Shown one piece after another: positions 8,027-64,000 of a stretch of DNA of 64,000 nt. Location: positions 897,866-961,865 of the forward strand of contig JBDRYS010000001.1 in assembly GCA_039803545.1 (NCBI GenBank). The letters are read 5' to 3'. Under the pieces are notes generated by a model. The model had not been told where the DNA came from. It worked only from the letters and a program-made list of their open reading frames with translations, and did no database searches. The stretch comes from a candidate division WOR-3 bacterium (GTDB lineage: Bacteria > Hydrothermota > Hydrothermia > UBA1063). Position numbers and translations under genes: made by a program. How positions within the stretch are numbered: the stretch's first letter is position 1; every line of letters starts with the position of its first letter.

Positions 8027-8027
8027 A

Positions 8028-11000: not shown

Positions 11001-11304
11001 AATTCCTTGCTAATGAAAACATATCTTTGGATCTGGTGAAAGAGCTCAAAAACTCAAACTATGATGTATGGAGAATGTATAAATTTAAAAAGGGGATAGT
11101 AGACCGCGATGTTCGTGATCTTTCCTTTAAAGAAGATAGAATTTTAGATACCTTTGACAAGGATTTGGGGAAACTGACAGTAAAAGAGAAGAAGGGAACA
11201 TTGGTTATAATTTGGCTAAGAATACACCAAAATCTATTCAATATATTAAAGATAGACTCTTTTTGCTCCTTGAGAAAATTGAAGAATTAAAAAGGGGGTT
11301 ATAA
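10997..11304 (+). pseudogene. DUF5615 PIN-like toxin, frameshifted near its C-terminus
   Basis: PIN-like RNase toxin partner of the DUF433 antitoxin. MKFLANENIS and ILDTFDKDLGKL are the family's two acidic motifs and both are present. As read the frame ends at 11290 (97 aa) with a tail (HQNLFNILKI...) unlike the family. In the overlapping frame the sequence continues TPKSIQYIKDRLFLLLEKIE and stops at 11304, two bases before cas7. One lost base near 11222-11230 (LRI-TPKSI) explains both. So the ancestral gene is 10997-11304 and the current copy has a foreign tail. It may be inactive, or the base may be missing only from the assembly. Confidence 0.75.
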
Positions 11305-11305
11305 A

Positions 11306-12319: not shown

Positions 12320-13101
12320 AAGGCCTCATATTTGAAATAAGGTTAAACTCACTTTACTCTATCCGCATACCCTTTACCTGGCAATCAGCCTTATCTTACC
12401 CCCTTTTACCTTCTTCTGCTGTAATAGGACTCCTCGCAAATGCTATACAAAGATCGAAAAATGACAAACGCCCCATTGAGTATTTGGAAAAATTAGAGGA
12501 TGAAATATTGTGGGCAGGTTCGCGCCTTAAAAAACCCTGTGTTGTGAAAAGCTATACCACATCCGCCATCACCAAGTGGGAAGATTTTATCGGCGGAAAA
12601 TTCACAAACGCCTTAACAAGACAATTCTGCTATTCAAAAAATTTGGAAATAGCTATAATATTTAAAGACAACAAAAGCATCCCCTTTGAGGATTACAAAG
12701 AAGCCTTAAAAACCTCTCCCCTAACCTGTGGTGACAGTGAGTCGCCTCTTTCCCTTGAATCAGACCCAGAAATTGTCGAAGTTGAAGAAGAAGATGCAAA
12801 CACGCACAAGGAAATTGTTACACCATTCCCAGTACCTTTTCTAAAAGAAGCAGAAATTGTAGAGGGTAAAGGTCACCTTTATCTAATGCATGAAAGGTGT
12901 TTAAAAAGGGAAGACAACTTACCATTGGTTAGCTACCTATTCCCTATTGAAGAGAAGAGAGGCATCTTATATCCTACCACTTTGAAAATAAAGAGCGATA
13001 AACTGAAAATTTACAAAATCAAAGAAAGAGGCATTTATATCGCCTACTCCCCTATTCCCTCAACGGACCGAACAGAGAGGAGAAAAGGTGGGAAGAAATA
13101 A
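12316..13101 (+). CDS. cas5: Type I Cas5
   Basis: Cas5 RAMP subunit of Cascade (261 aa), which caps the 5' handle of crRNA. The N-terminal FEIRLNSLYSIRIPFTWQSALSYPLLPSSAVIGLLANA carries the Cas5 pattern of an aromatic strand followed by P-L-x-P-S-x-x-x-G-L. The middle segment is Glu/Asp-rich (VEVEEEDAN) and probably a loop. The C-terminus is Lys/Arg-rich. ATG overlaps the cas7 stop. A 28-nt gap then precedes cas4, the first real break in the chain of overlapping cas genes. Confidence 0.82.
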   Translation: MKGLIFEIRLNSLYSIRIPFTWQSALSYPLLPSSAVIGLLANAIQRSKNDKRPIEYLEKLEDEILWAGSRLKKPCVVKSYTTSAITKWEDFIGGKFTNALTRQFCYSKNLEIAIIFKDNKSIPFEDYKEALKTSPLTCGDSESPLSLESDPEIVEVEEEDANTHKEIVTPFPVPFLKEAEIVEGKGHLYLMHERCLKREDNLPLVSYLFPIEEKRGILYPTTLKIKSDKLKIYKIKERGIYIAYSPIPSTDRTERRKGGKK

Positions 13102-13129
13102 AAACCGCAAAACGCCAATAAGTTTTTAG

Positions 13130-13618
13130 ATGATCACCGGAACACTAATCTGGTACTATTACATCTGTCCAAGAGAGGTGTGGCTTATGTCGAGACAGTT
13201 GACACCCTGGGAAGAAAATCCATTCATCGAGCTCGGACGTCTTATCTCTCAAGAATCTTATGAAAGGGACACAAAGGAAGTTCAAATAGAAAATATCGTA
13301 ATTGACATTGTTAAAACGCAAGATGAAGAAGTTATTATTGGCGAAGTGAAGAAGAGTTCTCGATTTATTAAAAGTGCAACAATGCAATTAGCTTTTTACT
13401 TGCTCAAATTAAAAGAATATGGCATAAATGCAAAAGGCATCCTACTCTTTCCAAAGGAAAAAAGAAGAATTCCCCTATCTCTAACGAAAGAAATGGAAGA
13501 GAAGTTAAATCTGGCCATAGATAGAATAAACCAAATCATCAAAAGTGAAACACCTCCACCTGCAACAAAAAACAGATTCTGTGCAAAATGCGGTTATAGA
13601 GAATTCTGCTGGGCATGA
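13130..13618 (+). CDS. cas4: Cas4 nuclease, adaptation
   Basis: Cas4 Fe-S nuclease (162 aa) that trims prespacers and helps choose PAM and orientation. One cysteine (YYYICPREVWL, C13) lies near the N-terminus, and three more are in CAKCGYREFCW at the C-terminus, giving the four-Cys cluster. The RecB-type PD-(D/E)XK core is seen as VIDIVK...IIGEVKKSS with QLAFYLL as the Q-motif. It overlaps cas1 by 4 nt. There is no clear Shine-Dalgarno sequence upstream of the ATG at 13130. Confidence 0.9.
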   Translation: MITGTLIWYYYICPREVWLMSRQLTPWEENPFIELGRLISQESYERDTKEVQIENIVIDIVKTQDEEVIIGEVKKSSRFIKSATMQLAFYLLKLKEYGINAKGILLFPKEKRRIPLSLTKEMEEKLNLAIDRINQIIKSETPPPATKNRFCAKCGYREFCWA

Positions 13619-14607
13619 AACGTACACTTTACATTTTTTCAGACGGTGAAATAAAGAGAAAGGGAAACACCATATACTTCGAATCTTCAGAAGGTAAGAA
13701 ATATGTTCCGATAGAAAACACGCAGGAAATCTTAATCTTTGGGGAAGTCTCCTTAAATAAACGCCTTTTAGAATTTCTAAATGAAAACGAAATAGTCGTG
13801 CACTTCTTCAACTATTATGGATTTTACATCGGTTCCTTTTACCCGAGAGAACACCTAAATTCAGGCTATATGATTTTAAAACAAGCTGAGCATTATCTTG
13901 ATACTACCAAAAGGCTCAGGCTCGCAAAAAAATTCGTTTGGGGCGCTGTTAAGAACATAATTAAAGTTCTTGAGTATTATATTGCCCGCGGAAAACCGCT
14001 ACATGAGATCGTTGAAAGAATAGCCAACCTGGAACCAAGCATTAGTATAGCTAATTCCGTAGAAAACCTAATGGCAATAGAAGGAAACATCCGTGATCAC
14101 TATTATGATTCCTTCAACATAATAATTGAAAACGAAAACTTCACTTTTGAGGGGAGAACCAGGAAGCCGCCAAAAAATATGATCAATGCTCTCATCAGTT
14201 TTTCCAATTCGCTTGTTTATGTAGTCTGTTTAAGCGAAATCTATCACACCCATCTTGATCCCCGCATCGGTTTTCTCCATTCAACCAACATGAGGAGATT
14301 CACCCTCAATCTTGATGTTGCAGAAATTTTCAAACCCATAATTGGAGACAGGCTCATATTCAGCGTTATAAACAAAGGAATCATTAAACCATCTCATTTC
14401 GAGGAAAAATTAAACGGAATTGTATTAAATGAAAAAGGCAAACAACTTTTCGTTCAAGAATTCGATGAACGACTCAAAACGACTATCAAACACAGGAAGT
14501 TAGGAAGGCATGTAAGTTACAGAGAACTCATTCGACTCGAGTTATACAAACTACAAAAACACCTTATTGGAGAAGAAGAATACACACCTTTTGTCGCCTG
14601 GTGGTGA
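13615..14607 (+). CDS. cas1: Cas1 integrase
   Basis: CRISPR integrase (330 aa) that inserts new spacers as a Cas1-Cas2 complex. Metal-binding residues appear as E in MAIEGNIRDHYY near 155, H in GFLHSTN near 222 and D in GDRLIF near 245. The N-terminal beta domain starts with LYIFSDGEIKRKGNTIYF, as in Cas1 of type I-A/I-B loci. The gene overlaps cas4 and ends one base before the cas2 start, and the array lies immediately downstream, the usual adaptation layout. Confidence 0.95.
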   Translation: MKRTLYIFSDGEIKRKGNTIYFESSEGKKYVPIENTQEILIFGEVSLNKRLLEFLNENEIVVHFFNYYGFYIGSFYPREHLNSGYMILKQAEHYLDTTKRLRLAKKFVWGAVKNIIKVLEYYIARGKPLHEIVERIANLEPSISIANSVENLMAIEGNIRDHYYDSFNIIIENENFTFEGRTRKPPKNMINALISFSNSLVYVVCLSEIYHTHLDPRIGFLHSTNMRRFTLNLDVAEIFKPIIGDRLIFSVINKGIIKPSHFEEKLNGIVLNEKGKQLFVQEFDERLKTTIKHRKLGRHVSYRELIRLELYKLQKHLIGEEEYTPFVAWW

Positions 14608-14608
14608 T

Positions 14609-14872
14609 ATGAATGTGATATTAGTTTACGACGTAAACGTTAAAAGGGTTGCTAAGGTACTCAAAACCTGCCGTAAATACCTCTACTGGGTTCAAAATTC
14701 TGTTTTTGAAGGAGAAATATCTCCAGCTAAACTCGAAAAATTAAAAATGGAATTATCAAAGATTATTGAACCAGAAGAGGACTCAGTCATCATTTATACC
14801 TTTAGGAGCTCATGGTATACCAATCGAGAAATAATTGGACTAAAGAAAGGCGGTGATGAGGTCTTTCTATAG
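14609..14872 (+). CDS. cas2: Cas2
   Basis: Structural partner of Cas1 in spacer integration (87 aa). MNVILVYDVN is the Cas2 ferredoxin-like first strand with the conserved Asp. The central segment KTCRKYLYWVQNSVFEGE is characteristic, and SVIIYTFRS is the last strand. ATG 14609 is right after the cas1 stop; the longer in-frame opening at 14567 would run inside cas1 and is rejected. It is the last gene before the CRISPR leader. Confidence 0.95.
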   Translation: MNVILVYDVNVKRVAKVLKTCRKYLYWVQNSVFEGEISPAKLEKLKMELSKIIEPEEDSVIIYTFRSSWYTNREIIGLKKGGDEVFL

Positions 14873-15034
14873 CCCTTTTAAAACCGTAAAGTCGTCAACC
14901 TTTAATAGTGCAAAAAACACAGGGGTACGACGACACCAAAAGCACTTGACAAAACAAACAAAGCCTAAAATAATAAGTTATTAGTAAAAGTTCTTTGAAA
15001 ATTCAGTTTAGTTAGTAGATAATAAATATAACGG
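14873..15034 (+). promoter_or_regulatory. CRISPR leader with promoter
   Basis: AT-rich 162-nt leader between cas2 and the first repeat. A sigma-70-type promoter is visible: TTGACA at 14946-14951, 17 nt, AATAAT at 14969-14974, which would start transcription about 50 nt before repeat 1. A GTCGTC (14891-14896) / GACGAC (14929-14934) inverted pair lies upstream of the promoter. Orientation is also supported by the repeat, which ends with the common ATTGAAAC 5'-handle. Confidence 0.7.
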
Positions 15035-17156
15035 GTTGCGAGCCTTCCTATGAGGAATTGAAACACAGTATAGATGATCTTCTCAGGGCAAACGGTAAGA
15101 TGTTGCGAGCCTTCCTATGAGGAATTGAAACCAACACTGGAAAAAGCAAGAAGTTCTGGCGTGGGAAGTTGCGAGCCTTCCTATGAGGAATTGAAACTCG
15201 TCAGTTTCAAACTCCTCGCCTACCAGCACTGTCGTTGCGAGCCTTCCTATGAGGAATTGAAACTGAAATTCACGGTTCTCTTCACCTCGAAGAAGTTCTC
15301 TATGTTGCGAGCCTTCCTATGAGGAATTGAAACTTTTCTTACTTGTTTACGATGTTCTTGAGTTCTTGAGAGTTGCGAGCCTTCCTATGAGGAATTGAAA
15401 CATTGCATTATGATTTTCGTGGATGTGTTGGATTCTATGAGTTGCGAGCCTTCCTATGAGGAATTGAAACTTACTATCCCTGCAAAAGGATGGATTGTAT
15501 CTGCAAAGGTTGCGAGCCTTCCTATGAGGAATTGAAACTATTTTCGCTACAGGGAATTTGTAGGTACTTTTAGCGTTGCGAGCCTTCCTATGAGGAATTG
15601 AAACTGATGTCAGTAGAAGAAACAGAGTTGCCCCACGTTACATGTTGCGAGCCTTCCTATGAGGAATTGAAACCAGGGTCTCCTGTACCTCTCTCGTCCA
15701 GTGAAACACGGGTTGCGAGCCTTCCTATGAGGAATTGAAACGATTCTGGGATGATATACTCTCTCTCTTTCTCGCCCGCGTTGCGAGCCTTCCTATGAGG
15801 AATTGAAACACTCTTACATGGGATAATATTGATTTCGCCAGTAAAAGTTGCGAGCCTTCCTATGAGGAATTGAAACTTCCAAATACGGTGCTCGCAGACA
15901 AAAACCTCTCTCGTTGCGAGCCTTCCTATGAGGAATTGAAACCTTGTTTCAGAGCGTTTCTGTAGAACGGTGTCCATATGAGTTGCGAGCCTTCCTATGA
16001 GGAATTGAAACTGTCTCCGGGTTCCTACGTCGGAAATTTCTGAACGAGGGTTGCGAGCCTTCCTATGAGGAATTGAAACGTAGACACTCTGATGCGCATG
16101 CGTGAGCAATATCGTGCGTTGCGAGCCTTCCTATGAGGAATTGAAACTACCTGATTTTAGGTGTTTTCATTACTCTAATCTTTTGTTGCGAGCCTTCCTA
16201 TGAGGAATTGAAACTCGGATACCTCCTCCTAAATCTAAGTCAATCCGCTCCAGGTTGCGAGCCTTCCTATGAGGAATTGAAACGCGTGCATAAAATACAC
16301 CCCTGAGAGATTCCCAGATTTGTTGCGAGCCTTCCTATGAGGAATTGAAACATCATCACTTGGTATCCTATGCCAAAGTTCGTATTCGAGTTGCGAGCCT
16401 TCCTATGAGGAATTGAAACATTGTCAATTCAATCTTACTCATTTTTTGTTTAGTGGTTGCGAGCCTTCCTATGAGGAATTGAAACCCCTTTGTCTTTTCA
16501 TTATGCGTTTATATGCGTTCTTGGTTGCGAGCCTTCCTATGAGGAATTGAAACTCGTAAAAATCTTGATTAACCTTAAACCGCCAAATATGTTGCGAGCC
16601 TTCCTATGAGGAATTGAAACTGCAAAAAGAATTGCTTCAAAAAACAAAGTAATTAGTTGTTGCGAGCCTTCCTATGAGGAATTGAAACACTGCCCAAAAA
16701 ATACCGCTTGAGGTTTTCTCAGCATTGTTGCGAGCCTTCCTATGAGGAATTGAAACTGCCTTCCCACACCGACAGTGATGTCGGCGGGGATAGTTGCGAG
16801 CCTTCCTATGAGGAATTGAAACTTCTGTTCACGTGGGGTTAGTCCTGTCTCATCCTCAATGTTGCGAGCCTTCCTATGAGGAATTGAAACTGCTAAACGG
16901 AACCAGATAATCGAAGTCTTGCCCCCGTTGCGAGCCTTCCTATGAGGAATTGAAACAAATAAGCAACACAAAGGAGGGTCAACAAAATGGCTGAGTTGCG
17001 AGCCTTCCTATGAGGAATTGAAACAAAGCGGATCATCGTGGTAAGCCTCAATAACTTTTGGTTGCGAGCCTTCCTATGAGGAATTGAAACCGGATGTAAG
17101 TAATGAATATGGCTGGTAACTTGAGTGTTGCGAGCCTTCCTATGAGGAATTGAAAC
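15035..17156 (+). CRISPR. CRISPR array, 32 repeats of 30 nt
   Basis: Thirty-two copies of a 30-nt repeat beginning GTTGCGAGCC and ending GGAATTGAAAC, separated by 31 unique spacers of 36-40 nt (repeat starts at 15035, 15102, 15168 ... 17061, 17127). All copies look identical, including the last. The repeat holds a TTCCT-ATG-AGGAA hairpin 7 nt before its 3' end, so cleavage at the stem base would give the usual 8-nt ATTGAAAC tag. Transcription from the leader on + is expected. ORFs crossing the array in either strand are repeat artefacts. Confidence 0.98.
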
Positions 17157-52297: not shown

Positions 52298-53212
52298 CTA
52301 AACTTCCTCAAAGTAATCCAAATCAATTTTCTTAATTTCAATAACCCTGTCAACCCGCACACCTAAGTTGTATTTGATCATGTAATCAATCAACTTGTCG
52401 CCGTCTATAAGAATCACTTTAATGTCTTTAAGACTCTCAGCATAATCCTTCGCTTCCTTTGTGAAACTCGCAGTTGTTATAAAAATTCCCTTTCTGGAAC
52501 CTTTCCCGTGAAGTGCCCCGACAAAGCTTTGTATCTCTTTCCTCCCGATAGTCTGGTCGGGTTTATATCTTTTCGCCTGAAGATAAATGTTATCAAGACC
52601 CAATAAGTCTTCCTTTATAACGCCATCAACGCCTTCATCACCACTTTTCCCAAGCACTTTACTGGCCTCTTCAAAAGTACCACCATACCCCATTTTAACA
52701 ATAAGTTCCAAAACCAGCTTTTCAAAAAAGCGGGGTGGGCGTTCCAGAATCTTTTTCATAAGCTCATCTTTTAAAGCCTCATTTAGTTTTCCCATTTCCC
52801 TTTCGATCACCTCTAAGGGTGTCAACTCTTCACTTTCTGATGATTCTTCAGCCTGTTTGACCACTGAACGCTTGCCATAAAAGAAATTTCTGAACTCTTC
52901 GAATTTCAACAAATATGCATGATCTATAACCGGTGGATTTTCTTTCAAAGCTTGCAAGCCACGTTCAGTAATCCTGACATAACCCCTTCGAGGCGTTTCA
53001 ATTAAACCCGCCTTTGCCAAATATAGTCTCGCCCATACGACTCTATTCACAAACTTGGTCTGCGTCCCGCTGGGCAAGAGTTCGGAGAGTTCCTCTTCGC
53101 TGAGATTAAAGTATTTAGCCACATAATCGAGTATCTCGGGAAACTTCCGCTCCTTACCGTCTCCCAAATATTCCAGCATAACTTTCCTGATCTCATCATA
53201 ACTAGGCAGCAT
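52298..53212 (-). CDS. mrr: Mrr-family restriction endonuclease
   Basis: Type IV-like endonuclease for modified DNA (304 aa). ATG 53212 is favoured over TTG 53215, with GGGAGG 8 nt upstream. N-terminal winged-helix domain (about 1-90, LSELLPSGTQTKFVNRVVWARLYLAKAGLIE) is Mrr_N. The C-terminal PD-(D/E)XK domain has KMGYGGTFEEASKVLGKSGDEGVDGVI and IYLQAKRYK (D...Q-x-K). GSRKGIFITTASFTKEA is the family motif. A start of the defence island. Confidence 0.9.
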   Translation of the reverse strand: MLPSYDEIRKVMLEYLGDGKERKFPEILDYVAKYFNLSEEELSELLPSGTQTKFVNRVVWARLYLAKAGLIETPRRGYVRITERGLQALKENPPVIDHAYLLKFEEFRNFFYGKRSVVKQAEESSESEELTPLEVIEREMGKLNEALKDELMKKILERPPRFFEKLVLELIVKMGYGGTFEEASKVLGKSGDEGVDGVIKEDLLGLDNIYLQAKRYKPDQTIGRKEIQSFVGALHGKGSRKGIFITTASFTKEAKDYAESLKDIKVILIDGDKLIDYMIKYNLGVRVDRVIEIKKIDLDYFEEV

Positions 53213-53391
53213 CAAAAACCTCCCGCATCAGTAAAAAGATTATAAACCCGTTATGTTAAATCAAAAAAACTTCGGAAATTCTAAGATTTCTTCTACAAAA
53301 GCAATCGATTAAAACTCGCCTCTCAAATCTTTCTAAACACCTCTTACAAAAATCCTTTCAGGAATTTAATAGAAAACTTTATGAACACTTT

Positions 53392-53937
53392 TTAAACTCT
53401 ACTTCCCGCCTTATCCAGTTTAATCCTGTAGCAGGTTAAGAGCTTCTCCTTTTCCCTGAAATCCCTGTCCAATTTTTCTACCAACTGCCAAAATCTTTTA
53501 CTGTGGTTACCTTCAACTAAGTGGCACATCTCATGGATCACAACATATCTCACCAAATCATCTGGCAAGTAAATTAAATCCTTATTAAAGATGATGTGCC
53601 CCTTTTTAGAGTTACAACTTCCCCAATACTTCCTCATCTTTCTAAAAAAGACCTTCCTTGGCGAAACTCCCAAAAATTCGACGCACTCTCCAATATAAAA
53701 ATCGACCACACCCTTTAGGTCATCCCTCGGGTGAGAGCTCAAGTTATCTGCGATATTTTCCAGTTCCCTAAAATAATCTATTTTCCTTTTAATCCAATCT
53801 AAATGGCCCTTTACAAACTCGTCAACCTGCATCGAGCTATTTCTCGGTACAATCACTTTCACCGCGTCTCTATAAACCTCAATCCGTGGATGTTTTACTT
53901 TCCTGTAAATCAAAATGTAATTAATTTCCCCTTCCAT
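53392..53937 (-). CDS. YgjP-like (DUF45) metallopeptidase
   Basis: Zinc peptidase of the YgjP/WLM type (181 aa). HEMCHLVEGNHSKRFW carries HExxH plus the third His; YWGSCNSKKGHIIFNKDLI is the preceding YgjP motif. It overlaps the hsdR 3' end by 17 nt, so it belongs to the type I restriction operon. YgjP-like genes often follow hsdR; their role there is unknown. Confidence 0.88.
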   Translation of the reverse strand: MEGEINYILIYRKVKHPRIEVYRDAVKVIVPRNSSMQVDEFVKGHLDWIKRKIDYFRELENIADNLSSHPRDDLKGVVDFYIGECVEFLGVSPRKVFFRKMRKYWGSCNSKKGHIIFNKDLIYLPDDLVRYVVIHEMCHLVEGNHSKRFWQLVEKLDRDFREKEKLLTCYRIKLDKAGSRV

Positions 53938-56896
53938 AGTAGGTTAACACCTCAAAAATCCTATTGTAAAGTTTTTCAAAACCTTCATAAGGAATCTTAT
54001 ATTTTGGTCTCAATTCGGCAAGATACATCCTCAAGTCTCTCTCAACATTTTTTGAAACTGCTGGATTTTGATCCCAACCTGGATAAAGCCTACCTCTAAC
54101 CCTTGCATAGATTTGCCTGGCAAGCTCTTCAGCTTCATTACTCTCAACAACCCCTTCATTCTCTAAAACCAACTTCATTCCAAATTCCACATCACTGAGT
54201 TTCGATTCCCCCCTCTCCCTTTCTTTATCCTCAATGAACTTCAGTACACCATCAATATCTTTACGGAGCTGGGATATATCCACACCTGCTTGCCACCTTT
54301 CTACCAATTCTTTTACTCTTTCCGCAATGCTCTTATAAATGGGATTCCGAGATTTTATAACCACCATGTATTTCAAATTGTTCAAAATTCCAACATACTT
54401 CTGGGTTTCCGCTAAATTCGAAGACTTAAGTGCTTTGATAGTTTCAAAATCGATAACCGCCGGCTTTTCCCTCCGAAGACCAGAGGGTTCAATCAAATCG
54501 TGGATTAAACTAATAGTCCTGTTAAAATACTTCTCCAAATTTCCCTCGTTGATATCCGGCCTCAAAAGCTTCTTGTAAAACTCGTATAGGAAAGAAAACC
54601 ACTTGTACCCATCAAGAAAATTCACCATTCTTCTATCGGTACTTAGAAATTCAAACTTCCTTCTCAATTCCCTATACAATAAGCTAAACTCATCCCCTCT
54701 TGTCCTTAAAATCTCGATGGCCCTGTCAAAACTCTCCCTACTAAAATCTCCGACCAAACCCCAAAACATTCCTTTTAACCGCTCAAATATTGAGAGAAAT
54801 TGTTCCCAGGCTACATCTGTATCAATGACCTTTTGTCTTATGATATTTATGTCTTCAACGGCGTAAGCACTTAGAGCCTCCTCAATATACTTAAAAATTC
54901 CAACATAATCAACTAAAAGCCCTGCGGCCTTCTCCTCGTGAGGTCTATTCACCCTGGCAATGGTTTGCAGTAGCCTGTGATTCTTCAAAATCTTGTAAAG
55001 GTATAGAACAGCAAGCTTCGGCTCGTCGAAACCCGTTATCAGCATATCCGTTACAATAAGAAGCTTGGGGTACTCCTCCTTTTTGAATTTCTCAGTAATT
55101 TGATTTGCGATTTCAACATCATCTGAAGTGCCAAATCGCTCGGTTTGTACACGAACAAACTCCTTTATCTCCTCATCCTCTCCTCCAAAGGTCATCACAA
55201 CTTCACTGTATTTGGGGTCTAAATATTCATCCAAAATCCTCTTAAATCTTACACAGGCCTTCCGACTTCCCGTAACAATCAATCCCTTGAACTTCCCATC
55301 AAAATGTTCTTTATAGTGCTGTGCAATGTCTTCGCAAATTTGCCGGATATTTTTAGGATTTTCCAGGAATACGGTGATCTCATTAATTCTTTTTCTTACC
55401 GCTGTTTCCAGATCCCTAAGCTCGCTTTCCTCCGCAATATCATCTACATCCACCCTTTTCAAGTACCAATCCAGGTCTTGCTCTTTTAAGTTAACCTCTT
55501 CCTTTCTCAACTCGTAAACGATGGGGACAACAAAACCATCCCTTTCGGCCTCATCAATGAAATACCTGTCTAAATAAAGTTCCGGATCGTCATCCCTTAA
55601 AAAGCCAAATTCTTTGTAGGTATTCCTGTCCTTGAGAGCAATTGGTGTTCCAGTAAATCCAAAGAAGAAGGCGTTTGCCAAAATAGTTCTCAATTTCCCT
55701 GCCAAGATTCCATACTGAGTCCTGTGCACCTCATCCAGGAAACAAATGATGTCCTTCCTCTGATTAACCTCTCCAATTTGGTCCAGTAAAAATTCCTCTT
55801 TTAGGTTGAATTTATGAATAAGCGTTAAGAAAGCACCTCGTTCCCCACGGTTGTTGTCATGCGTCAAAACATCCTTTAAGGCGCTAATACTCTCTATCTT
55901 TTTAAAACCGAAATGCAAATCCAAAGCGCTTAACTCATCACTAAATTGCCTTTCCAATTCCCGCCTATCCACAATGAAAAATATAGTAGGTTTACCAAGC
56001 TCAAAGTAGAGTTTATGGGCAGCGAAAATCATCGTTAAAGTCTTTCCAGACCCTTGCCAATGCCAGATTAATCCCCTGTTTTTGTCGGTCTTCCCCGCCA
56101 AATTATCCATTACCCTTTGGTAAATCTTATTAACCGCTCGATATTGCATATACCTCCCGATAACCTTAGTCATTTCGCCCCTGAATTCCCGAACAAAAAG
56201 GAAGTTTTTGACAATATCCAAAAGCAAATTGGGACTCAGCATTTCAAAGATAGCCTCATCATCGCTCTTGAACTCCGACCTCCAGACTTCCTGTTTCACA
56301 TCCTCAAGCCATGGGACAATGGGAAAATATTTAACCTTTTCAGCAAGACCTATTCCGATTTGGACATATTTGTAAAGTTCTGGAACGGTCTGTTCGTATC
56401 TCTTGATTTGCTTGTATGCAGAATAGTAATCCGACTTTGCCGTATAGGGATTTTTGCATTCGATGTTCACAAGAGGAATACCGTTCACGAAAAGCAGAAG
56501 GTCCACGCGGATTTTGTCTCTCCCCCAAAATTGAACCTGGTTTGAAAAGACAAATTCATTGTTGTGAATGTTTTTAAAGTCAAAAAGTTGAACATACTTT
56601 ACAACCTTATCCTTTTCCAACTTTATTGGGACTCCATACTTAAAGAAGCTTAGAATTTCTTTGTGCCCGTTTTGATCGGTGTGGGCAAATTTGAGTTTAT
56701 TGATGACGGTCTTTAAGTCCTCTTCCGTAAACTCCACATCTTTGTTGATCTCCAAAATTTTCCTCTTCAAGTTCTCAACGAGGAGAGGCTCCTCAATGCT
56801 TTCTCGTGGGAGATTTTGAGGTTCAATATAGTTCCATCCATGCTCCTTAAGTTTCTCAATCGCCCAATCTTCCACAAGTTTCTTCTCTAAATACAT
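53921..56896 (-). CDS. hsdR: Type I restriction enzyme, R subunit
   Basis: Translocase/nuclease of the type I restriction complex (991 aa). N-terminal nuclease with RVDLLLFVNGIPLVNIECKNP (D...E-x-K) near residues 130-150, Walker A WQGSGKTLTM near 282, DEVHRTQYG near 390 and GFTGTP, with motif VI-like QTIARVNRPHEEKAAG near 645. The C-terminal ~300 residues are helical. Codes for the restriction part; specificity comes from HsdS. Length is normal for the family. Confidence 0.94.
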   Translation of the reverse strand: MYLEKKLVEDWAIEKLKEHGWNYIEPQNLPRESIEEPLLVENLKRKILEINKDVEFTEEDLKTVINKLKFAHTDQNGHKEILSFFKYGVPIKLEKDKVVKYVQLFDFKNIHNNEFVFSNQVQFWGRDKIRVDLLLFVNGIPLVNIECKNPYTAKSDYYSAYKQIKRYEQTVPELYKYVQIGIGLAEKVKYFPIVPWLEDVKQEVWRSEFKSDDEAIFEMLSPNLLLDIVKNFLFVREFRGEMTKVIGRYMQYRAVNKIYQRVMDNLAGKTDKNRGLIWHWQGSGKTLTMIFAAHKLYFELGKPTIFFIVDRRELERQFSDELSALDLHFGFKKIESISALKDVLTHDNNRGERGAFLTLIHKFNLKEEFLLDQIGEVNQRKDIICFLDEVHRTQYGILAGKLRTILANAFFFGFTGTPIALKDRNTYKEFGFLRDDDPELYLDRYFIDEAERDGFVVPIVYELRKEEVNLKEQDLDWYLKRVDVDDIAEESELRDLETAVRKRINEITVFLENPKNIRQICEDIAQHYKEHFDGKFKGLIVTGSRKACVRFKRILDEYLDPKYSEVVMTFGGEDEEIKEFVRVQTERFGTSDDVEIANQITEKFKKEEYPKLLIVTDMLITGFDEPKLAVLYLYKILKNHRLLQTIARVNRPHEEKAAGLLVDYVGIFKYIEEALSAYAVEDINIIRQKVIDTDVAWEQFLSIFERLKGMFWGLVGDFSRESFDRAIEILRTRGDEFSLLYRELRRKFEFLSTDRRMVNFLDGYKWFSFLYEFYKKLLRPDINEGNLEKYFNRTISLIHDLIEPSGLRREKPAVIDFETIKALKSSNLAETQKYVGILNNLKYMVVIKSRNPIYKSIAERVKELVERWQAGVDISQLRKDIDGVLKFIEDKERERGESKLSDVEFGMKLVLENEGVVESNEAEELARQIYARVRGRLYPGWDQNPAVSKNVERDLRMYLAELRPKYKIPYEGFEKLYNRIFEVLTYYGRGN

Positions 56897-56988
56897 AATC
56901 TTTTATTTCCCCCTATGCCAATTTAAAAATTTAACATACAGCAGGCGTTTTTTCATTTTTCTGTAGCCGCGCCACCGCAAGCCCATCA

Positions 56989-58116
56989 TTAATTTTCCAA
57001 CTCACTAAGGTCTAACGAATCAACATCTATTTCCTGATTCATAATCTTATTCAGAAGAGTCTTAAACAACTCTTCATAAAGTTCTTTCTTCTTTTGTTCA
57101 ATCTCGATCTTTTGGTCGATGGTTTGAAGAATCTCCGCAATCTCCTGCTGTTCAGGGAGAGTGGGAAGAGGGATTTTGAAAGGAGAGAGAGACCTTATAG
57201 TAATTTGCGGTTGTCCACTTCCTGAGATTACTTCGGATAAATCCAAGTTGAGTAGCAGATAATATAAAAACATTTTAAAGAGATCTTTAGAAATCGGATG
57301 GACAACCATTGCATTACCTGTAATCCAAGACTTAGGCTCTGATAGATTTATAGTTCCGCAAGTTGATCCTCTACAAGTTACTAAAACTTCCGATTCTTCG
57401 TGATTATATTTTGTGAAATATCCAATTACCCCATTTGCTCCATATACTTTATAAGGACCCGATTCTGAGATCTCTTTCAAGGTGATTGTTTTAGGTTGAT
57501 AAATTTTACAAACCTCCCCCAGCCTCACCACTTCCCAATCCTCTGGAATCTCTCCGATTTCAGTTTCCTTTAATTTTCTTCCTTTTCTAAAGGATGGGCC
57601 GCCATACTTAAAAAGTTCTGCCATCAGGCTCTTTTTAAGTTCTTTCGTCTTTTCAATAATCTTATCGTGAATCTCCACAGCAGATTGAACAGTATCAAGA
57701 ATCTTCACGATTTTTTGTTGGATGGGAAGAGGAGGAAGGGGTACTATTAAATTTTTAACAAAAGAGGGAGAAATAAATGGTTGTCCAGTCCCTGTTTTAG
57801 GCCATTTATTCTCATCATTAAGGTAATAATACATAAATTTAGCAGTTACTGGATTTTCAAATTTTATAATTTGCGTATTAGCCAGAGCTGTCCATTCTCC
57901 TTCAGCATAAAAACATTTTCCACATCTTGATCCTATAGAAGAAAGAATTACAGCAAAACCAGAATCGTACGCTTCTTTAGTGAAACCATCTTGCCCCGCA
58001 GCACTAAAAGCTGGAAATCCTCTTTCTACATAATCTTTTTTGGTAATTCCGCTTCTCCCCCCTGAATAAATTTCTGCAATCTCTCCTAATTTTTTTGTTG
58101 GCCAAGTTGATTTCAT
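56989..58116 (-). CDS. hsdS: Type I restriction enzyme, specificity subunit
   Basis: DNA-recognition subunit (375 aa) with two target-recognition domains: 1 near residues 1-115 (KLGEIAEIYSGGRSG...LIVPLPPLPIQQKIVKILD) and 2 near 190-325 (VRLGEVCKIYQPKTI...FKIPLPTLPEQQEIAEILQTIDQKIE), each ended by the P-L-P-x-x-x-Q-Q-x-I helix. 4-nt overlap with the upstream ATPase gene. Target sequence unknown. No inverted repeats or second hsdS copy were seen for switching. Confidence 0.94.
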   Translation of the reverse strand: MKSTWPTKKLGEIAEIYSGGRSGITKKDYVERGFPAFSAAGQDGFTKEAYDSGFAVILSSIGSRCGKCFYAEGEWTALANTQIIKFENPVTAKFMYYYLNDENKWPKTGTGQPFISPSFVKNLIVPLPPLPIQQKIVKILDTVQSAVEIHDKIIEKTKELKKSLMAELFKYGGPSFRKGRKLKETEIGEIPEDWEVVRLGEVCKIYQPKTITLKEISESGPYKVYGANGVIGYFTKYNHEESEVLVTCRGSTCGTINLSEPKSWITGNAMVVHPISKDLFKMFLYYLLLNLDLSEVISGSGQPQITIRSLSPFKIPLPTLPEQQEIAEILQTIDQKIEIEQKKKELYEELFKTLLNKIMNQEIDVDSLDLSELEN

Positions 58117-59825
58117 AACTTTGAAACTTTTTTAATTATTTCAATATAAGCATCAGGTATTTCATCAGGTTCAAGTTCTTGAGCGATAGCTTTTCCAATT
58201 CTCCATCTTTTATTATTTTTCAGCAATTCAAAAACCTTTTCTTTTAAATTATCGTTTTCTGTTTTTAAATCCTTGTCATTAACCTCATATCCCCAATGCT
58301 TTTTTACAAAATTAATAGCATTTATTATTTTACGTAATGTGTCATTATTAGAATTTACAGCAATCATTTTCTCGAAGGGTTGATGTATAAAAATATTGTA
58401 ATTTCTTAATTTATTTTTTAAATCTTCACTATTGAGAGGTTCTAATTGAAATTTTTCTTCAGTTTCAATAAGATTATTTTCTTCTAATTTTTTAAGAAAT
58501 TGCTGTGTATCGTTAAGCTTGTCCTCATCTATAAGAACAATAAATGGAATATTAAGACTTTTCAAAAGCTTGATAAAAAACCAGATGGTATCACCTCTAC
58601 TATTAAGAACAGAAACAGAATTATAATCAAAAGAGTAATTTATCTCAACTTCTTTTTCACCCTCTTTTGTTTTCTCCAAAATCTTTTTAGAAACTTCACT
58701 AAAAAATCCTTCCTCGGTGTCTCCTTCCACAACTAAAACTCTTTTAGCAAAAAATATTTCCTCTAAATTACGGCCATGTATTTCTAAAATTTTCTTTTCT
58801 TGAGAAGAAAGGTTTATTTTATAATGTTTTGTTTTGCTATCTTCTTTACCAACTCTAATAATATTATCGATTTGAGTTATATCGATTAAATGATCGGAGT
58901 GTGTAGTTATAATGACTTGAGAGTACTCAGAAAGATTTTTAAGAGAAAATATCAATTGTCTCTGGCTATGGGGGTGTAAACCAATTTCTGGTTCATCAAT
59001 TCCATAAATTATAAATTTTTTCTCCTCATCTCTAAGGTATTTTGCCATTACTCTAAACAGCGAGATAATAATTAAATTCTGCGTACCTAATCCTTTCTTA
59101 ATGACCTCAGAAATATAACCGTCATCTATTAAAATTTTCATTTCACTTAAAAAATCGGAATATTTAGTTGAAGATGGCGAGAGTACAATCTTTTTAATAT
59201 CTGTTTGGTCTTTAGAAATTTTTTCTAAATCAGAAATTATTTTTTTAACTTCATCAATATCTGTTAATTTCTTCTTTGCTTCATCTATAATTGATATTAC
59301 CTCATCCAATTTTTCTTTCTGAGCTTTTTTAATAATTATTTCTTTAAAATATTTTAATGGAGACTTCCATCTTATTGGAGCAATTTCCATGATATTTCTT
59401 AAAGATTTCACCCTTAGAAAAAATAATTTCTTTTCAAAATCCCAATAATATCCAAAGGGTTTATTATATTTTTGCTTCCATTGTTCGCCAATTCTAACTT
59501 CAAATGAGCCGCCATTTTGCTTTGAAAATTTATATCTTACAGCAACTAATGAATTAAAATCAGGATTGATTGATGCAAGCTCATTACCCTCAAGGGAAGC
59601 TTCTATTATAATTTCTCGATTTTCTTCGCCATTAAAGAAATGGTCTGTAGATGGCTCAAAATTAGGCAGATACACGTCACCCAATAAAAGATCTATTGCT
59701 TCCATTATATTTGATTTACCTGCATTATTTGGGCCAACAAGAATATTTAATCCTTTATTAAACTCTATTTTTTCTTCCTCTATAGACCTAAAGTTTTTAA
59801 TATATAATTCTTTTATGTGAATCAT
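58113..59825 (-). CDS. OLD-family ATPase/TOPRIM nuclease in the hsd operon
   Basis: SMC-like ATPase with a TOPRIM nuclease domain (570 aa). Walker A VGPNNAGKSN near residue 32, signature-like LKNLSEYSQVIITTHSDHL and Walker B FIIYGIDEPEIGLHPHSQRQL near 275-310, then TOPRIM KRVLVVEGDTEEGFFSEVSK near 365 (catalytic Glu) and FIVLIDEDKLND (DxD) near 435. This is the OLD plan seen in anti-phage proteins such as GajA, but no UvrD-type GajB partner is present. Overlaps by 4 nt with hsdM and hsdS, so it is fixed in the operon. Exact OLD class unassigned. Confidence 0.85.
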   Translation of the reverse strand: MIHIKELYIKNFRSIEEEKIEFNKGLNILVGPNNAGKSNIMEAIDLLLGDVYLPNFEPSTDHFFNGEENREIIIEASLEGNELASINPDFNSLVAVRYKFSKQNGGSFEVRIGEQWKQKYNKPFGYYWDFEKKLFFLRVKSLRNIMEIAPIRWKSPLKYFKEIIIKKAQKEKLDEVISIIDEAKKKLTDIDEVKKIISDLEKISKDQTDIKKIVLSPSSTKYSDFLSEMKILIDDGYISEVIKKGLGTQNLIIISLFRVMAKYLRDEEKKFIIYGIDEPEIGLHPHSQRQLIFSLKNLSEYSQVIITTHSDHLIDITQIDNIIRVGKEDSKTKHYKINLSSQEKKILEIHGRNLEEIFFAKRVLVVEGDTEEGFFSEVSKKILEKTKEGEKEVEINYSFDYNSVSVLNSRGDTIWFFIKLLKSLNIPFIVLIDEDKLNDTQQFLKKLEENNLIETEEKFQLEPLNSEDLKNKLRNYNIFIHQPFEKMIAVNSNNDTLRKIINAINFVKKHWGYEVNDKDLKTENDNLKEKVFELLKNNKRWRIGKAIAQELEPDEIPDAYIEIIKKVSKL

Positions 59826-61345
59826 ATCCTCTCCAAAATTCCCTTCACCTTTTCCTCGACCCTTTTTCTTTCTTCTTCTAATTTTTCTAAATCTGATTTG
59901 ATTTCGCTTAATGGGCGATAATTCTCTTCCTCACTCACACTCACAAACCTCGAAGGACTTAAATTATAATCGGCCTCCTTTGCCTCCTCTTTCGTTATAA
60001 CTTTCGCAAACTTTTCTACATCTTTAAATTCCTTGTATGCATCTACAATTTTTCCTATATTCTCATCGGACAATGTGTTCTGCTTTTTCCCCGGCACAAA
60101 CTCCTTGCTGGCATTGATCAATAAAATCTTTCCCTTTCGCTCTTCCGGTTTTTGCTTGTTGAAAACAATAATTACTGCAGGTGCACCAGTGTTGTAAAAT
60201 AATTTCTCGGGTAGTAAGATTACCGCTTCAACCAGGTCTTCATCAACTATCCGTTGTCTTATCAACTTTTCCCTTCCACCCCTTGAAACAGCCCCTGTAT
60301 CTATAACTACAGCAACCTTTTCCTTTGCCGAAGCAAGCATATGTTGAATCCATACCCAATCGGCAGATTGCTTTGTGCCAAATCCAAATTTAAACCTATC
60401 TTGCCAATATTCTCCCTTCTTTAAGTTATCTTCATCGTAACCGTCCTGGTTCCACGGGGGATTTGCAATTACATAGTCAAACTGCTTAATGCTATTACCC
60501 TCTTTGAACTTGGGGTAAAGGAGGGTATCCCCCAGGTAAAAACGAAAATTGTTAATATCGTGGAGCAGCATGTTCATTTTTGCCAAAGCAAGGGTTTTGG
60601 AATTTACTTCTTGACCAAACAAAAACAAGGTATTTGCTATGTCCTTTCCAAACTTCTCCTCAACGTGCTTATATCCAACAATAAGCATTCCAGCAGAACC
60701 TAAAGCGGGGTCATAAATACTTTTCTTAGGCTCAGGGTCCAGAATTTCGATCATAAGTTTAATAACTTCTCTCGGGGTGTAAACTTCACCTTCCTTTGCC
60801 TTTTGAGGGGCAAAATACTTCAAAATCCACTCGTAGGCATCTCCCAAAATATCTCCAGAGATTTCCTTAAAGGAAAATTTGCTAAAAAGTTCAACAAGTT
60901 GGTTCAAAATGACCGCATTTTCTGGGTTGCTGGTAAACTGATGGAAATCGAACTGAGAAAAGATGTCCTGGTAATTGGGATTAAGATCTGCCAGCTTTTT
61001 AACAGCGATGGAAAACCTCTCGGAAATCTTCTGAGGTTCTCTCCGCATATTATCCCAGAGGTATTCCCTCGGAAAATTAAAAGTATGATAAGTATCAGCG
61101 GTTGCCTCTTTTACTGCCTCACCTTCATCCCACCCCTTCTTAATGAGTTCTGACTTTGTTTCCTCAAACTCCTTCTCCCACTTATCGGAGATGGACTTGT
61201 AGAAAAGCAAGAACAAAATAAAGGTATAATCCACTCGCGTTCTAATGAGATCCGCCGCCTGCTTCAGAAGGTTAATTAATTGGTCTTTCGTTGAAATAGA
61301 ATTGTTTTTAGAATTCCCATTAAACAAGCTTTTCTGCCCGTACAC
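59822..61345 (-). CDS. hsdM: Type I restriction enzyme, M subunit
   Basis: N6-adenine methylase (507 aa). N-terminal HsdM helical domain, SAM-binding motif I YDPALGSAGMLIVGY near residue 208 and catalytic NPPWNQDGYD (NPPW/Y) near residue 296. Ends with a basic, coiled C-terminus. AAAGGAGG precedes the ATG. It is the first gene of the hsdM-OLD-hsdS-hsdR-ygjP operon and follows the palindrome-containing promoter region. Confidence 0.94.
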   Translation of the reverse strand: MYGQKSLFNGNSKNNSISTKDQLINLLKQAADLIRTRVDYTFILFLLFYKSISDKWEKEFEETKSELIKKGWDEGEAVKEATADTYHTFNFPREYLWDNMRREPQKISERFSIAVKKLADLNPNYQDIFSQFDFHQFTSNPENAVILNQLVELFSKFSFKEISGDILGDAYEWILKYFAPQKAKEGEVYTPREVIKLMIEILDPEPKKSIYDPALGSAGMLIVGYKHVEEKFGKDIANTLFLFGQEVNSKTLALAKMNMLLHDINNFRFYLGDTLLYPKFKEGNSIKQFDYVIANPPWNQDGYDEDNLKKGEYWQDRFKFGFGTKQSADWVWIQHMLASAKEKVAVVIDTGAVSRGGREKLIRQRIVDEDLVEAVILLPEKLFYNTGAPAVIIVFNKQKPEERKGKILLINASKEFVPGKKQNTLSDENIGKIVDAYKEFKDVEKFAKVITKEEAKEADYNLSPSRFVSVSEEENYRPLSEIKSDLEKLEEERKRVEEKVKGILERI

Positions 61346-61390: not shown

Positions 61391-61482
61391 GTGAAAATTT
61401 TTTCACACCCTCGAAAACCCAAACTCTCACAAATCCACCTTTAAATATACAAAAGTATATAACAAAACCCCTCTCCTTTCAA
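61391..61482 (-). promoter_or_regulatory. hsd operon promoter with two palindromes
   Basis: On the - strand a promoter TTGAAA (61482-61477), 17 nt, TATACT (61459-61454). Its -10 sits in the palindrome ATATAC-AAAA-GTATAT (61445-61460). Downstream, in the leader, GTGAAAA-TT-TTTTCAC (61391-61406) is a second palindrome. Both could be operators that delay restriction gene expression. Confidence 0.62.
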
Positions 61483-62615: not shown

Positions 62616-63695
62616 TTATAACCATTCTTCAAATCTACTTTTTACAAGTCCTAATTTGTTGATACTCTCCATGGCTTCTGACAAACGCTCATGCGTGCTA
62701 ATTACATCTTTAACTTCCCAAAATGCTAACGATTTTCTAAAATTTTCTGGAAGGCCCTGAATCTCATCTCGAATTTTTTCAATTCGTTTAGCGTCTGATA
62801 CTGCAATAATCTTTTGAACAGTAGGATTGTTAAGAGCCTTCTGCAAATTAAGTATAAGGCTATCTATTGAACCGCTCTTATGAACTTCAAAGACATAAGT
62901 CACCACACCAAGATTTGCTATTCTAGCCATCCATACACAATCAACACGTGCACCAGAAGCTATTTGTTTTTCTGTATCAACTTCAAATCCTAACCAATTA
63001 CCAATGTCTCTTATAAAATCCCGTATTTCATCATGGTCGAATTCTTTCTCTTCAAGAATTAGAGGGATTTCTTCTTTTTCTGTCTTCTCCTTTTCTGTAA
63101 ACCATACTTCATACAGAAAGTAATCTACCGCCAATAAGTCAGCATCTCTTAATCCTAACTCCTTAAGATACTGTGCAATCTCAAGAAAAACCTTATTTAT
63201 CTCTACATACTCTTTACCCGATATATTGTATTTTGCCAATGGTAAGGCATCAAACTGCAAAATTTTTAAAGCTTTTCGCGCTTTGTCATTCCAGAATCCA
63301 TACTTATTAGGGTCATAATAACACAATATTTCTGTAATTGTGGCTGGCCCCAACCCCTTTATTTCTCTTAAAAATCTATCAAATCTCCTATCAAATGACT
63401 CTGGTCCATATAATAAGTTTTCAAGTTCGTCAATGATTTTATCCATACCATTTTCGCCTACTATTTTTTGCACTAAGTATTCCTTGTTTCCCCATAATGC
63501 TGAAGCCCAAAGCTTAGAGATAAGCTCACCGAATTCAAGTTCGGTCATCGATCTTAACCTTTCCCTTGAAAGCAAAGGTACAATTAACTCACGCCGTTCC
63601 TCACGAGATTCCAACTCATCCATAAAGGCCTTTGATGACTTGAATTTAGTAAAGTAGTCTTTAATCTTTTGATGCTGCTCTTTATTTAACGCCAT
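62616..63695 (-). CDS. Two-domain HhH-like / PD-(D/E)XK nuclease
   Basis: Protein of 359 aa; ATG 63695 is 8 nt after GGAGG and is preferred to GTG 63704. Residues ~90-150 (FLREIKGLGPATITEILCYYDPNKYGFWNDKA) look like a helix-hairpin-helix. Residues ~230-320 look like a PD-(D/E)XK domain: GFEVDTEKQIASGARVDCVW, then VTYVFEVHKSGSIDSLILNL (D...E-x-x-K), then IIAVSDAKRIEKIRDEI. This layout is common in stand-alone restriction-like proteins. It is intact, near the type I system, but function is not proven. Confidence 0.72.
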   Translation of the reverse strand: MALNKEQHQKIKDYFTKFKSSKAFMDELESREERRELIVPLLSRERLRSMTELEFGELISKLWASALWGNKEYLVQKIVGENGMDKIIDELENLLYGPESFDRRFDRFLREIKGLGPATITEILCYYDPNKYGFWNDKARKALKILQFDALPLAKYNISGKEYVEINKVFLEIAQYLKELGLRDADLLAVDYFLYEVWFTEKEKTEKEEIPLILEEKEFDHDEIRDFIRDIGNWLGFEVDTEKQIASGARVDCVWMARIANLGVVTYVFEVHKSGSIDSLILNLQKALNNPTVQKIIAVSDAKRIEKIRDEIQGLPENFRKSLAFWEVKDVISTHERLSEAMESINKLGLVKSRFEEWL

Positions 63696-64000
63696 ATTTT
63701 CCACCTCCTATCGTGGTCTGGATCTTTTGTTAACTCATTTATGCTCAAGCTACTCGCACATACGCTGTCAAAATTAGGAAAGTATGGAAACCGTTTACCC
63801 ACAGATCTATTTTCGGCAAGTATCAACTTTTATTTTCCCTGTTACATAACAAGAGGCATATTATTCGAATTATCATCATTCCCCTTCCCAACTTTCTAAT
63901 TCCACTTCGGGGATTTTAACTACCTGCGATATTCTATAATAACGCATTTGCAATATTATTAACAATGCAATTCAGAAAGTCAAGCTTTCCGCATTCATCA
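63696..64000. other. Gene-free end of window
   Basis: AT-rich, no ORF with a ribosome-binding site seen. It holds the upstream region of the nuclease gene; no strong promoter was recognised. Nothing else supportable. Confidence 0.4.

What the first reader, a model, noticed from the sequence alone, without database searches (positions are those of the whole stretch)
53392..61345. OLD-family nuclease fixed inside a type I restriction operon
hsdM, OLD, hsdS overlap by 4 nt each, then hsdR and a YgjP-like protease. The OLD protein has intact Walker and TOPRIM motifs. Type I systems with such inserts may back up restriction with a second nuclease that senses phage or broken DNA.
Basis: partly seen in the sequence, partly recalled or inferred. 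Interest (0 to 1): 0.6.

Follow-up and report, generated by a model that had tools for sequence, protein, structure and literature searches.

The report
Swappable OLD nuclease inside restriction operon
A bacterium of the little-known WOR-3 group carries an OLD-family DNA-cutting enzyme gene wedged between the methylase and specificity genes of a type I restriction system; it is not a fixed part of that system but one of many interchangeable defence genes found in the same slot, a known kind of arrangement with a new example.

Summary
hsdM, an OLD-family ATPase-TOPRIM gene and hsdS follow each other with 4-nt ATGA overlaps, then hsdR and a YgjP metallopeptidase. The OLD protein has all its motifs, and its confident AlphaFold model (pLDDT 88) best matches Thermus OLD and GajA.

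'Fixed' is wrong. The gene is the most AT-rich in the window (27.6% GC, z = -3.5), and no full-length close relative was found in 147 genomes of the phylum. The hsdM-hsdS gap is a cargo slot: of 32 WOR-3 operons with both genes on one contig, 26 hold at least one ORF between them, mostly defence or toxin families. OLD is one recurrent cargo. A second, unrelated type I operon in this genome also has an OLD gene overlapping hsdS, and 14-15 of the 79 nearest OLD loci in GTDB touch hsd genes, by repeated recruitment. The closest relative (68% identity, another phylum's bin) keeps the same OLD-hsdS overlap.

Best reading: horizontally exchanged, translationally coupled defence cargo, probably an auxiliary DNA-end nuclease or a guardian of the restriction system. 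No activity is shown. Embedding of defence genes in type I operons is already published; OLD here is a new member.

The parts
59822..61345 (-). hsdM (507 aa, GTG start preceded by AAAGGAGGA), type I methyltransferase subunit with DPALGSAG and NPPW motifs
   Evidence: PF02384 360 bits, PF12161 46 bits; sequence; 61% identical HsdM in a same-order genome, 78% over a partial match in a same-class genome
58113..59825 (-). OLD-family ATPase-TOPRIM nuclease (570 aa), embedded cargo gene; GC 27.6%, GC3 20%
   Evidence: PF13175, PF20469; PADLOC GajA 6.5e-52 / Old 3.2e-40; phmmer and Foldseek best match 6p74 TsOLD; lowest GC of 36 ORFs and highest codon-usage distance
59822..59825 (-). hsdM stop / OLD start overlap ATGA, with GGAGAGG just upstream of the OLD start
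   Evidence: sequence
58113..58116 (-). OLD stop / hsdS start overlap ATGA, no clear Shine-Dalgarno for hsdS; the same overlap and the first ~30 nt of hsdS are conserved in L133
   Evidence: sequence
56989..58116 (-). hsdS (375 aa, two TRDs); 5' half GC3 23%, 3' half 35%
   Evidence: PF01420 two stretches
53921..56896 (-). hsdR (991 aa) with HSDR_N and SWI2/SNF2 helicase
   Evidence: TIGR00348 620 bits, cut-off 285; PF04313
53392..53937 (-). YgjP-like HExxH metallopeptidase (181 aa), overlaps hsdR by 17 nt; recurrent partner downstream of hsdR in WOR-3 operons
   Evidence: PF01863 E 9e-37; found after hsdR in 10 of the listed operons, counting the window
61454..61482 (-). promoter-like site TTGAAA-17-TATACT about 110 nt upstream of hsdM (weak evidence: the site count in the region is not above chance)

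Best explanation
The OLD gene is horizontally acquired, exchangeable defence cargo in the hsdM-hsdS slot of a type I restriction-modification operon. Shown: the core hsdM and hsdR genes have native base composition; OLD, and to a lesser degree hsdS, are AT-rich; the same slot in related operons holds different defence or toxin genes; and OLD genes have entered hsd operons repeatedly, most often right next to hsdS. Inferred: insertion kept ATGA overlaps on both sides, so OLD is made by translational coupling in step with HsdM and HsdS, and a nonsense mutation in OLD would also lower HsdS. Inferred from relatives: OLD works as a second, ATP-regulated DNA nuclease. It stays quiet while restriction and end-processing work, and cuts DNA or kills the infected cell when a phage blocks restriction or leaves DNA ends that host recombination enzymes cannot clear. 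It therefore covers phages that escape HsdR.
For: Operon and motifs. Fold: pLDDT 87.9, best PDB hits TsOLD (E 3e-24) and GajA. Foreign composition. Slot survey: 26 of 32 WOR-3 operons with both hsdM and hsdS hold at least one ORF of 60 aa or more between them, 22 with one of 150 aa or more; cargo GC below hsdM in 24 of 26 (Wilcoxon p 1.3e-6), hsdS likewise in 24 of 26, hsdR not. Cargo are Schlafen/AlbA, AbiJ, Fic, SIR2, NTase/HepT, RhuM, Piwi, KAP, DUF1016 families, and in the S-R slot DarT-macro, GmrSD, YhcG. Second OLD, 32% identical, with 4-nt overlap into hsdS2 of an unrelated operon. OLD in hsd operons elsewhere; at least 12 changes of linkage forced by supported branches. Precedent for embedded genes acting as separate complementary defences: TgvAB (PMC11411939), DarTG2 (PMC12255303). 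DNA-end logic of Gabija/OLD: PMC12407980.
Against: No activity, expression or phage data exist. L133 shares both OLD and the hsdS 5' end with the window, so OLD and hsdS may travel as a unit and the pair could be functionally specific. Recurrent adjacency to hsdS could mean a physical interaction with the specificity subunit rather than independent action. Most comparison genomes are fragmented MAGs. Low GC can reflect gene-class bias as well as recent transfer. The host's end-processing enzymes (RecBCD or AddAB) were not surveyed.
Confidence: 0.62

Rival explanations
1. OLD is a true guardian of this type I system, as PrrC is for EcoprrI: it binds HsdM/HsdS (or senses their DNA-mimic inhibitors, as PARIS senses Ocr) and is released to kill the cell when a phage anti-restriction protein disables the enzyme.
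For: Overlap with both M and S genes. In most hsd-linked OLDs seen here hsdS or an M-S fusion is the immediate neighbour. The ATPase half matches the PARIS AriA profile at 1.6e-38. PrrC and PARIS precedents: PMC12707154, PMC9122126, PMC3874168.
Against: OLD genes sit in M-S, S-M and post-S or post-M positions of unrelated type I systems and mostly outside hsd operons (about 65 of the 79 loci scored have no clear hsd gene nearby), so no single partner co-evolves with them. Other unrelated cargo uses the same slot.
Confidence: 0.22
2. One reading: OLD is a fixed fourth component of this type I system.
For: The same OLD-hsdS overlap occurs in L133, in another phylum's bin; M-fragment-OLD-S-x-R-YgjP in L166 and OLD-S-R-YgjP in L083.
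Against: Absent from the slot in nearly all related operons; no full-length close homologue in same-genus genomes; OLD1 and OLD2 of the same genome are only about 32% identical; the L166 and L083 OLD proteins fall far from OLD1 on the tree.
Confidence: 0.04
3. Neutral or selfish passenger: a gene carried in by recombination at the hypervariable hsdS end of the operon, with no selected role.
For: hsdS and cargo are both compositionally foreign while M and R are not. L133 shows a decayed copy, with a stop codon in OLD and stop plus frameshift in hsdS.
Against: The window's OLD is an intact 570-codon frame with every catalytic residue; cargo across the slot is rich in defence and toxin families; OLD is recruited repeatedly.
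Confidence: 0.1
4. Gabija remnant: a GajA that lost its GajB helicase partner and now works alone or with a UvrD-type helicase in trans.
For: PADLOC GajA is the best profile; OLD1 groups weakly with the GajA-like protein of L145, which has a UvrD helicase next to it inside an hsd operon.
Against: No UvrD gene in the operon; the three in this genome lie more than 450 kb away or on another contig. The best PDB match by sequence and by fold is class 1 TsOLD. L133, its closest relative, has no helicase beside it either.
Confidence: 0.07

Closest known systems
Defence genes embedded in other defence operons (Payne et al. 2024, bioRxiv 2024.01.29.577857, read here only as cited in PMC11411939, PMC12255303 and PMC12988326; PADLOC PDC and HEC families)
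   Same: A defence-type gene lies between core genes of a multi-gene system; PDC, pAgo and SoFic profiles match many of the WOR-3 cargo genes.
   Different: None of the papers read here describes an OLD nuclease between hsdM and hsdS; the phylum-wide slot survey in WOR-3 is new as far as these papers show.
TgvAB in the type I operon of Vibrio cholerae VPI-2 (PMC11411939) and RloF/RloA/RloB of Campylobacter jejuni (PMC4619093, PMC2928727)
   Same: Extra nuclease or unknown genes inside an hsd operon; TgvAB acts as a separate complementary defence.
   Different: GmrSD-type (TgvAB, RloF) or unassigned (RloA/B) genes; TgvAB and RloF lie between hsdS and hsdR rather than between M and S.
RRDM island of enteropathogenic E. 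coli: RptR, type I R-M, DarTG2, M48 metallopeptidase (PMC12255303)
   Same: Cargo inside an hsd operon and a zinc metallopeptidase gene after hsdR, as YgjP here; WOR-3 locus L064 even has DarT-macro between hsdS and hsdR plus YgjP.
   Different: Cargo is a toxin-antitoxin pair in the S-R slot; a repressor gene precedes hsdM there, none was recognised here.
PrrC in EcoprrI; PARIS (PMC9122126, PMC12707154, PMC3874168)
   Same: ABC-type ATPase effector coupled to restriction; sensing of anti-restriction proteins.
   Different: PrrC carries a HEPN tRNase, not a TOPRIM; PARIS splits ATPase and TOPRIM into two genes and was described from P4-like satellites.
OLD family classes 1-3 (TsOLD, P2 Old, GajA, retron Eco8 effector; PMC10568477)
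   Same: Domain order, motifs and fold.
   Different: Class 1 is defined as a lone gene not near defence genes, class 2 has GajB, class 3 a reverse transcriptase; this OLD sits inside an hsd operon.

Membership tests
OLD-family nuclease | N-terminal ABC-type ATPase with Walker A, signature-like, Walker B and H-loop motifs | tested here: met
   PF13175 125 bits; motifs at 31, 245, 277, 309; key residues conserved over 73 relatives
OLD-family nuclease | C-terminal TOPRIM with E and DxD metal ligands | tested here: met
   PF20469 47.5 bits (cut-off 23.2); E367, D433, D435 conserved in at least 90% of 73 relatives
OLD-family nuclease | OLD fold | tested here: met
   model pLDDT 87.9; Foldseek 6p74 E 3.2e-24, GajA 1.3e-23
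OLD-family nuclease | metal-dependent DNA cleavage | not testable with these tools
   needs purified protein
OLD class 1 | single gene not near other defence genes | tested here: not met
   lies between hsdM and hsdS with 4-nt overlaps
Gabija (OLD class 2) | adjacent UvrD-like GajB helicase | tested here: not met
   operon neighbours are hsdM and hsdS; UvrD genes more than 450 kb away or on another contig
Retron Eco8 type (OLD class 3) | matches the Eco8 effector family and has an adjacent reverse transcriptase | tested here: not met
   NF038234 65 bits, cut-off 250; no reverse transcriptase domain among the operon genes scanned
PARIS | separate or fused AriA ATPase and AriB TOPRIM effector | tested here: inconclusive
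   ATPase half matches AriA (1.6e-38), but it is a single chain with OLD-type TOPRIM and no AriB gene next to it
MADS (methylation-associated defence) | MAD2 methylase and MAD3 ATPase above curated cut-offs | tested here: not met
   MAD2 63.5 of 720 bits, MAD3 46 of 420 bits
Type I restriction-modification | HsdM, HsdS and HsdR on one strand as one gene cluster | tested here: met
   PF02384, PF12161, PF01420 x2, PF04313, TIGR00348 above cut-off; the TIGR00497 HsdM equivalog is below its cut-off (196 of 243 bits)
Type I-embedded defence cargo | gene between core hsd genes, replaced by other genes in related operons | tested here: met
   slot survey of 32 operons; cargo families
Type I-embedded defence cargo | antiphage activity of the embedded gene | not testable with these tools
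   needs phage challenge

The most novel reading that the evidence does not exclude
Type I-embedded OLD proteins form a functional class of their own: single-chain OLD nucleases translationally coupled to hsdS that bind or read the state of the HsdMS methylase and trigger DNA destruction or cell death when restriction is inhibited. That would combine PrrC and PARIS logic, re-invented several times by different OLD lineages and exchanged together with hsdS.
Probability: 0.18. Interest if true: 0.72.

Novelty: new member of a known kind. Interest (0 to 1): 0.42.

Why it matters
It turns one odd gene into a population-level statement: in WOR-3 bacteria the gap between hsdM and hsdS is a docking site where most type I operons carry exchangeable defence cargo, with OLD nucleases among the repeat visitors. 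A 2023 review notes that no cellular class 1 OLD has been shown to give broad phage defence on its own (PMC10568477); embedded single-gene OLDs with intact motifs, two in one genome, are direct candidates for that test. The slot is also a search handle for unknown defence genes (several cargo ORFs match no family).

Tried and rejected
Gabija, retron, PARIS and MADS membership were tested and mostly not met (see Membership tests). Flanking repeats or insertion-element ends around the OLD gene: only short chance-like repeats. Promoter and terminator scans are at chance level, so no internal promoter is claimed. A first structure prediction from 6 sequences was poor (pLDDT 48) and was replaced by a 73-sequence one. 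I first thought that only the OLD frame, not its surroundings, is shared with L133; nucleotide comparison showed that the OLD-hsdS junction and about 30 nt of hsdS are shared too, so the mobile unit may include the hsdS 5' end. Plasmid and phage searches gave only OLD relatives below 60% identity, mostly 20-30%; of four plasmid hits inspected, two were Gabija-type pairs, one of these downstream of a type I operon. Whether hsdS 5' halves are specially AT-rich compared with 3' halves across loci: no (p = 0.44).

Full report
What is there. On the minus strand lie hsdM (59822-61345), an OLD-family gene (58113-59825), hsdS (56989-58116), hsdR (53921-56896), a YgjP metallopeptidase (53392-53937) and, 176 nt further, an Mrr-type restriction gene (52298-53215). 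hsdM/OLD and OLD/hsdS overlap by ATGA. OLD has a GGAGAGG ahead of its start inside hsdM; hsdS has no clear ribosome site of its own. hsdS and hsdR are 92 nt apart.

The OLD protein. Pfam AAA_15 (125 bits) and OLD-like_TOPRIM (47.5 bits, cut-off 23.2) match. Walker A, signature-like GLGTQ, Walker B, H-loop, TOPRIM glutamate and DxD are present, and the key residues are conserved in at least 90% of 73 relatives. A model from 73 fetched relatives (pLDDT 87.9) finds Thermus scotoductus OLD first and GajA next in the PDB; sequence search gives the same order. There is no GajB-like helicase or reverse transcriptase among the operon genes. By context it is none of the published OLD classes: class 1 is described as lone genes away from defence genes, class 2 has GajB, class 3 has a retron (PMC10568477).

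It is not fixed. OLD is the lowest-GC gene of 36 ORFs of 200 aa or more in the window (27.6%, z = -3.5; GC3 20%) and has the highest codon-usage distance; hsdM, hsdR and YgjP are ordinary (39-40%), hsdS intermediate (36%). Among 60 relatives, three of the same genus included, no close full-length homologue exists. In 147 genomes of the phylum the best other matches are about 30% identical.

A cargo slot. I collected hsdM loci from the phylum and read the genes between hsdM and hsdS. Thirty-two loci have both genes on one contig and strand. Six are adjacent or overlapping; 26 hold one or more ORFs of at least 60 aa, 22 of them at least one of 150 aa or more. The closest HsdM relatives carry other genes at the same point: L056 (61% identical HsdM) a DUF6036 nucleotidyltransferase, a KAP NTPase and two unassigned ORFs; L060 Fic and AbiJ; L061 a pentapeptide ion channel; L064 a short Piwi, plus DarT-macro between hsdS and hsdR; L066 Schlafen/AlbA, plus GmrSD between hsdS and hsdR. 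Over 57 M-S slot proteins the commonest Pfam families are Schlafen/AlbA with HATPase (8), AbiJ (6), Fic (5), nucleotidyltransferases, HepT, SIR2; PADLOC adds pAgo, SoFic and several candidate families named PDC. Cargo is lower in GC than the hsdM of the same locus in 24 of 26 loci (Wilcoxon p 1.3e-6), hsdS likewise (p 5.7e-7), hsdR not (p 0.17). So hsdM and hsdR look like the stable frame, and the cargo-plus-hsdS segment like the exchanged part. These loci are related, so the p-values overstate the evidence; defence genes and hsdS may also be AT-rich for other reasons.

OLD as recurrent cargo. The same genome has a second type I operon (L053, G000:C1:205000-224500) whose HsdM is 33% identical to the first. 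Its slot holds an ImmA/IrrE-type gene, a DUF4411 gene and an OLD gene that overlaps hsdS2 by 4 nt. OLD1 and OLD2 are about 31% identical, so this is not a recent duplication of the operon. In other WOR-3 genomes: L078 hsdR-hsdS-OLD-hsdM; L145/L073 hsdR-RadC-DUF4062-hsdS-OLD-UvrD-hsdM, a Gabija-like pair inside a type I operon; L083 OLD-hsdS-hsdR-YgjP at a contig end; L166 hsdM fragment-OLD-hsdS-x-hsdR-YgjP. In a scan of GTDB genomes with an OLD alignment the best 80 loci were kept; 79 could be scored and 15 (14 without the weak L198) have an hsd gene within 2 kb on the same strand. On a tree of 89 OLD proteins the hsd-linked state needs 14 changes, at least 12 forced by supported branches (one of the 18 rows marked linked, L191_14869, is a mis-called SMC-like protein, and L193/L205 were scored unlinked there before their hsdS was recognised). 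OLD genes have thus entered, or left, type I operons many times.

The nearest relative. L133 (contig CALLVF010000068.1, binned as Patescibacteria; binning not checked) encodes an OLD 68% identical over the full length. DNA identity runs from the OLD start through the stop and about 30 nt into hsdS, with the same ATGA overlap. The locus is decayed: a stop at codon 57 of OLD, stop and frameshift in hsdS, and an hsdR fragment upstream in place of hsdM. So in this lineage OLD and at least the 5' end of hsdS share a history. This fits exchange by recombination at hsdS, but it also leaves room for a functional tie between OLD and HsdS.

How it probably works. Shown: co-directional, overlapping genes and an ATPase-TOPRIM protein with intact motifs. 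Inferred: one transcript and coupled translation, so OLD level follows HsdM and supports HsdS. Inferred from family knowledge: P2 Old kills recBC cells and its ATPase and TOPRIM residues are needed (PMC10568477); Gabija attacks linear DNA that RecBCD does not process (PMC12407980); PrrC and PARIS act when restriction is blocked (PMC12707154, PMC9122126). I judge independent auxiliary nuclease action most likely, because unrelated cargo uses the slot and most OLD genes lie outside hsd operons; a PrrC-like guardian is the main rival.

Novelty. Genes embedded in type I operons are known: prrC, rloA/rloB/rloF (PMC2928727, PMC4619093), tgvAB (PMC11411939), darTG2 with a metallopeptidase after hsdR (PMC12255303), HEPN genes (PMC3710099), and the guilt-by-embedding survey of Payne et al. 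(cited in PMC11411939 and PMC12988326; the preprint itself was not available here). I found no paper describing OLD in this position, but the library holds open-licence papers only. Verdict: a new member of a known kind, with a useful survey around it.

Noticed in passing
L053 (G000:C1:205000-224500), 7799-16866: Second type I operon of the same genome: hsdM2, ImmA/IrrE (M78) gene, DUF4411 gene, OLD2, hsdS2, hsdR2. The first two cargo genes look like a toxin-antitoxin pair and are as AT-rich (27-29% GC) as OLD.
   Followed up: partly
window 53392-53937; L060, L064, L066, L083, L166, L222, L223, L224, L225: A YgjP-type metallopeptidase gene follows hsdR (overlapping it in most) in many WOR-3 type I operons with different cargo, so it looks like a core partner of the restriction system; its role there is unknown. 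It resembles the M48 gene of the RRDM island.
   Followed up: partly
L073/L145 (JALVOT010000006.1), hsdS to hsdM: Complete Gabija-like pair (GajA-like OLD plus UvrD helicase) between hsdS and hsdM of an EcoEI-type operon that also carries RadC and DUF4062 genes.
   Followed up: partly
L064 1781-6796: Short Piwi (pAgo-like) protein with a 244-aa unassigned neighbour in the hsdM-hsdS slot and a DarT-macro fusion in the hsdS-hsdR slot of one operon.
   Followed up: no
window 52298-53215: Mrr-family type IV restriction gene 176 nt downstream of YgjP on the same strand, possibly a further layer of the same defence cluster.
   Followed up: no
window 62616-63704: 362-aa ORF upstream of hsdM with no Pfam, NCBIfam or PADLOC match; the 1.2 kb between it and hsdM contains no ORF of 80 aa or more.
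   Followed up: no
L056 12088-13410 and 15410-17170; L060 13251-14267; L061 1429-2625; L069 14009-16609; L229 3316-4380: Cargo ORFs of 338-866 aa in hsd slots that match no Pfam family: candidates for unknown defence genes.
   Followed up: no
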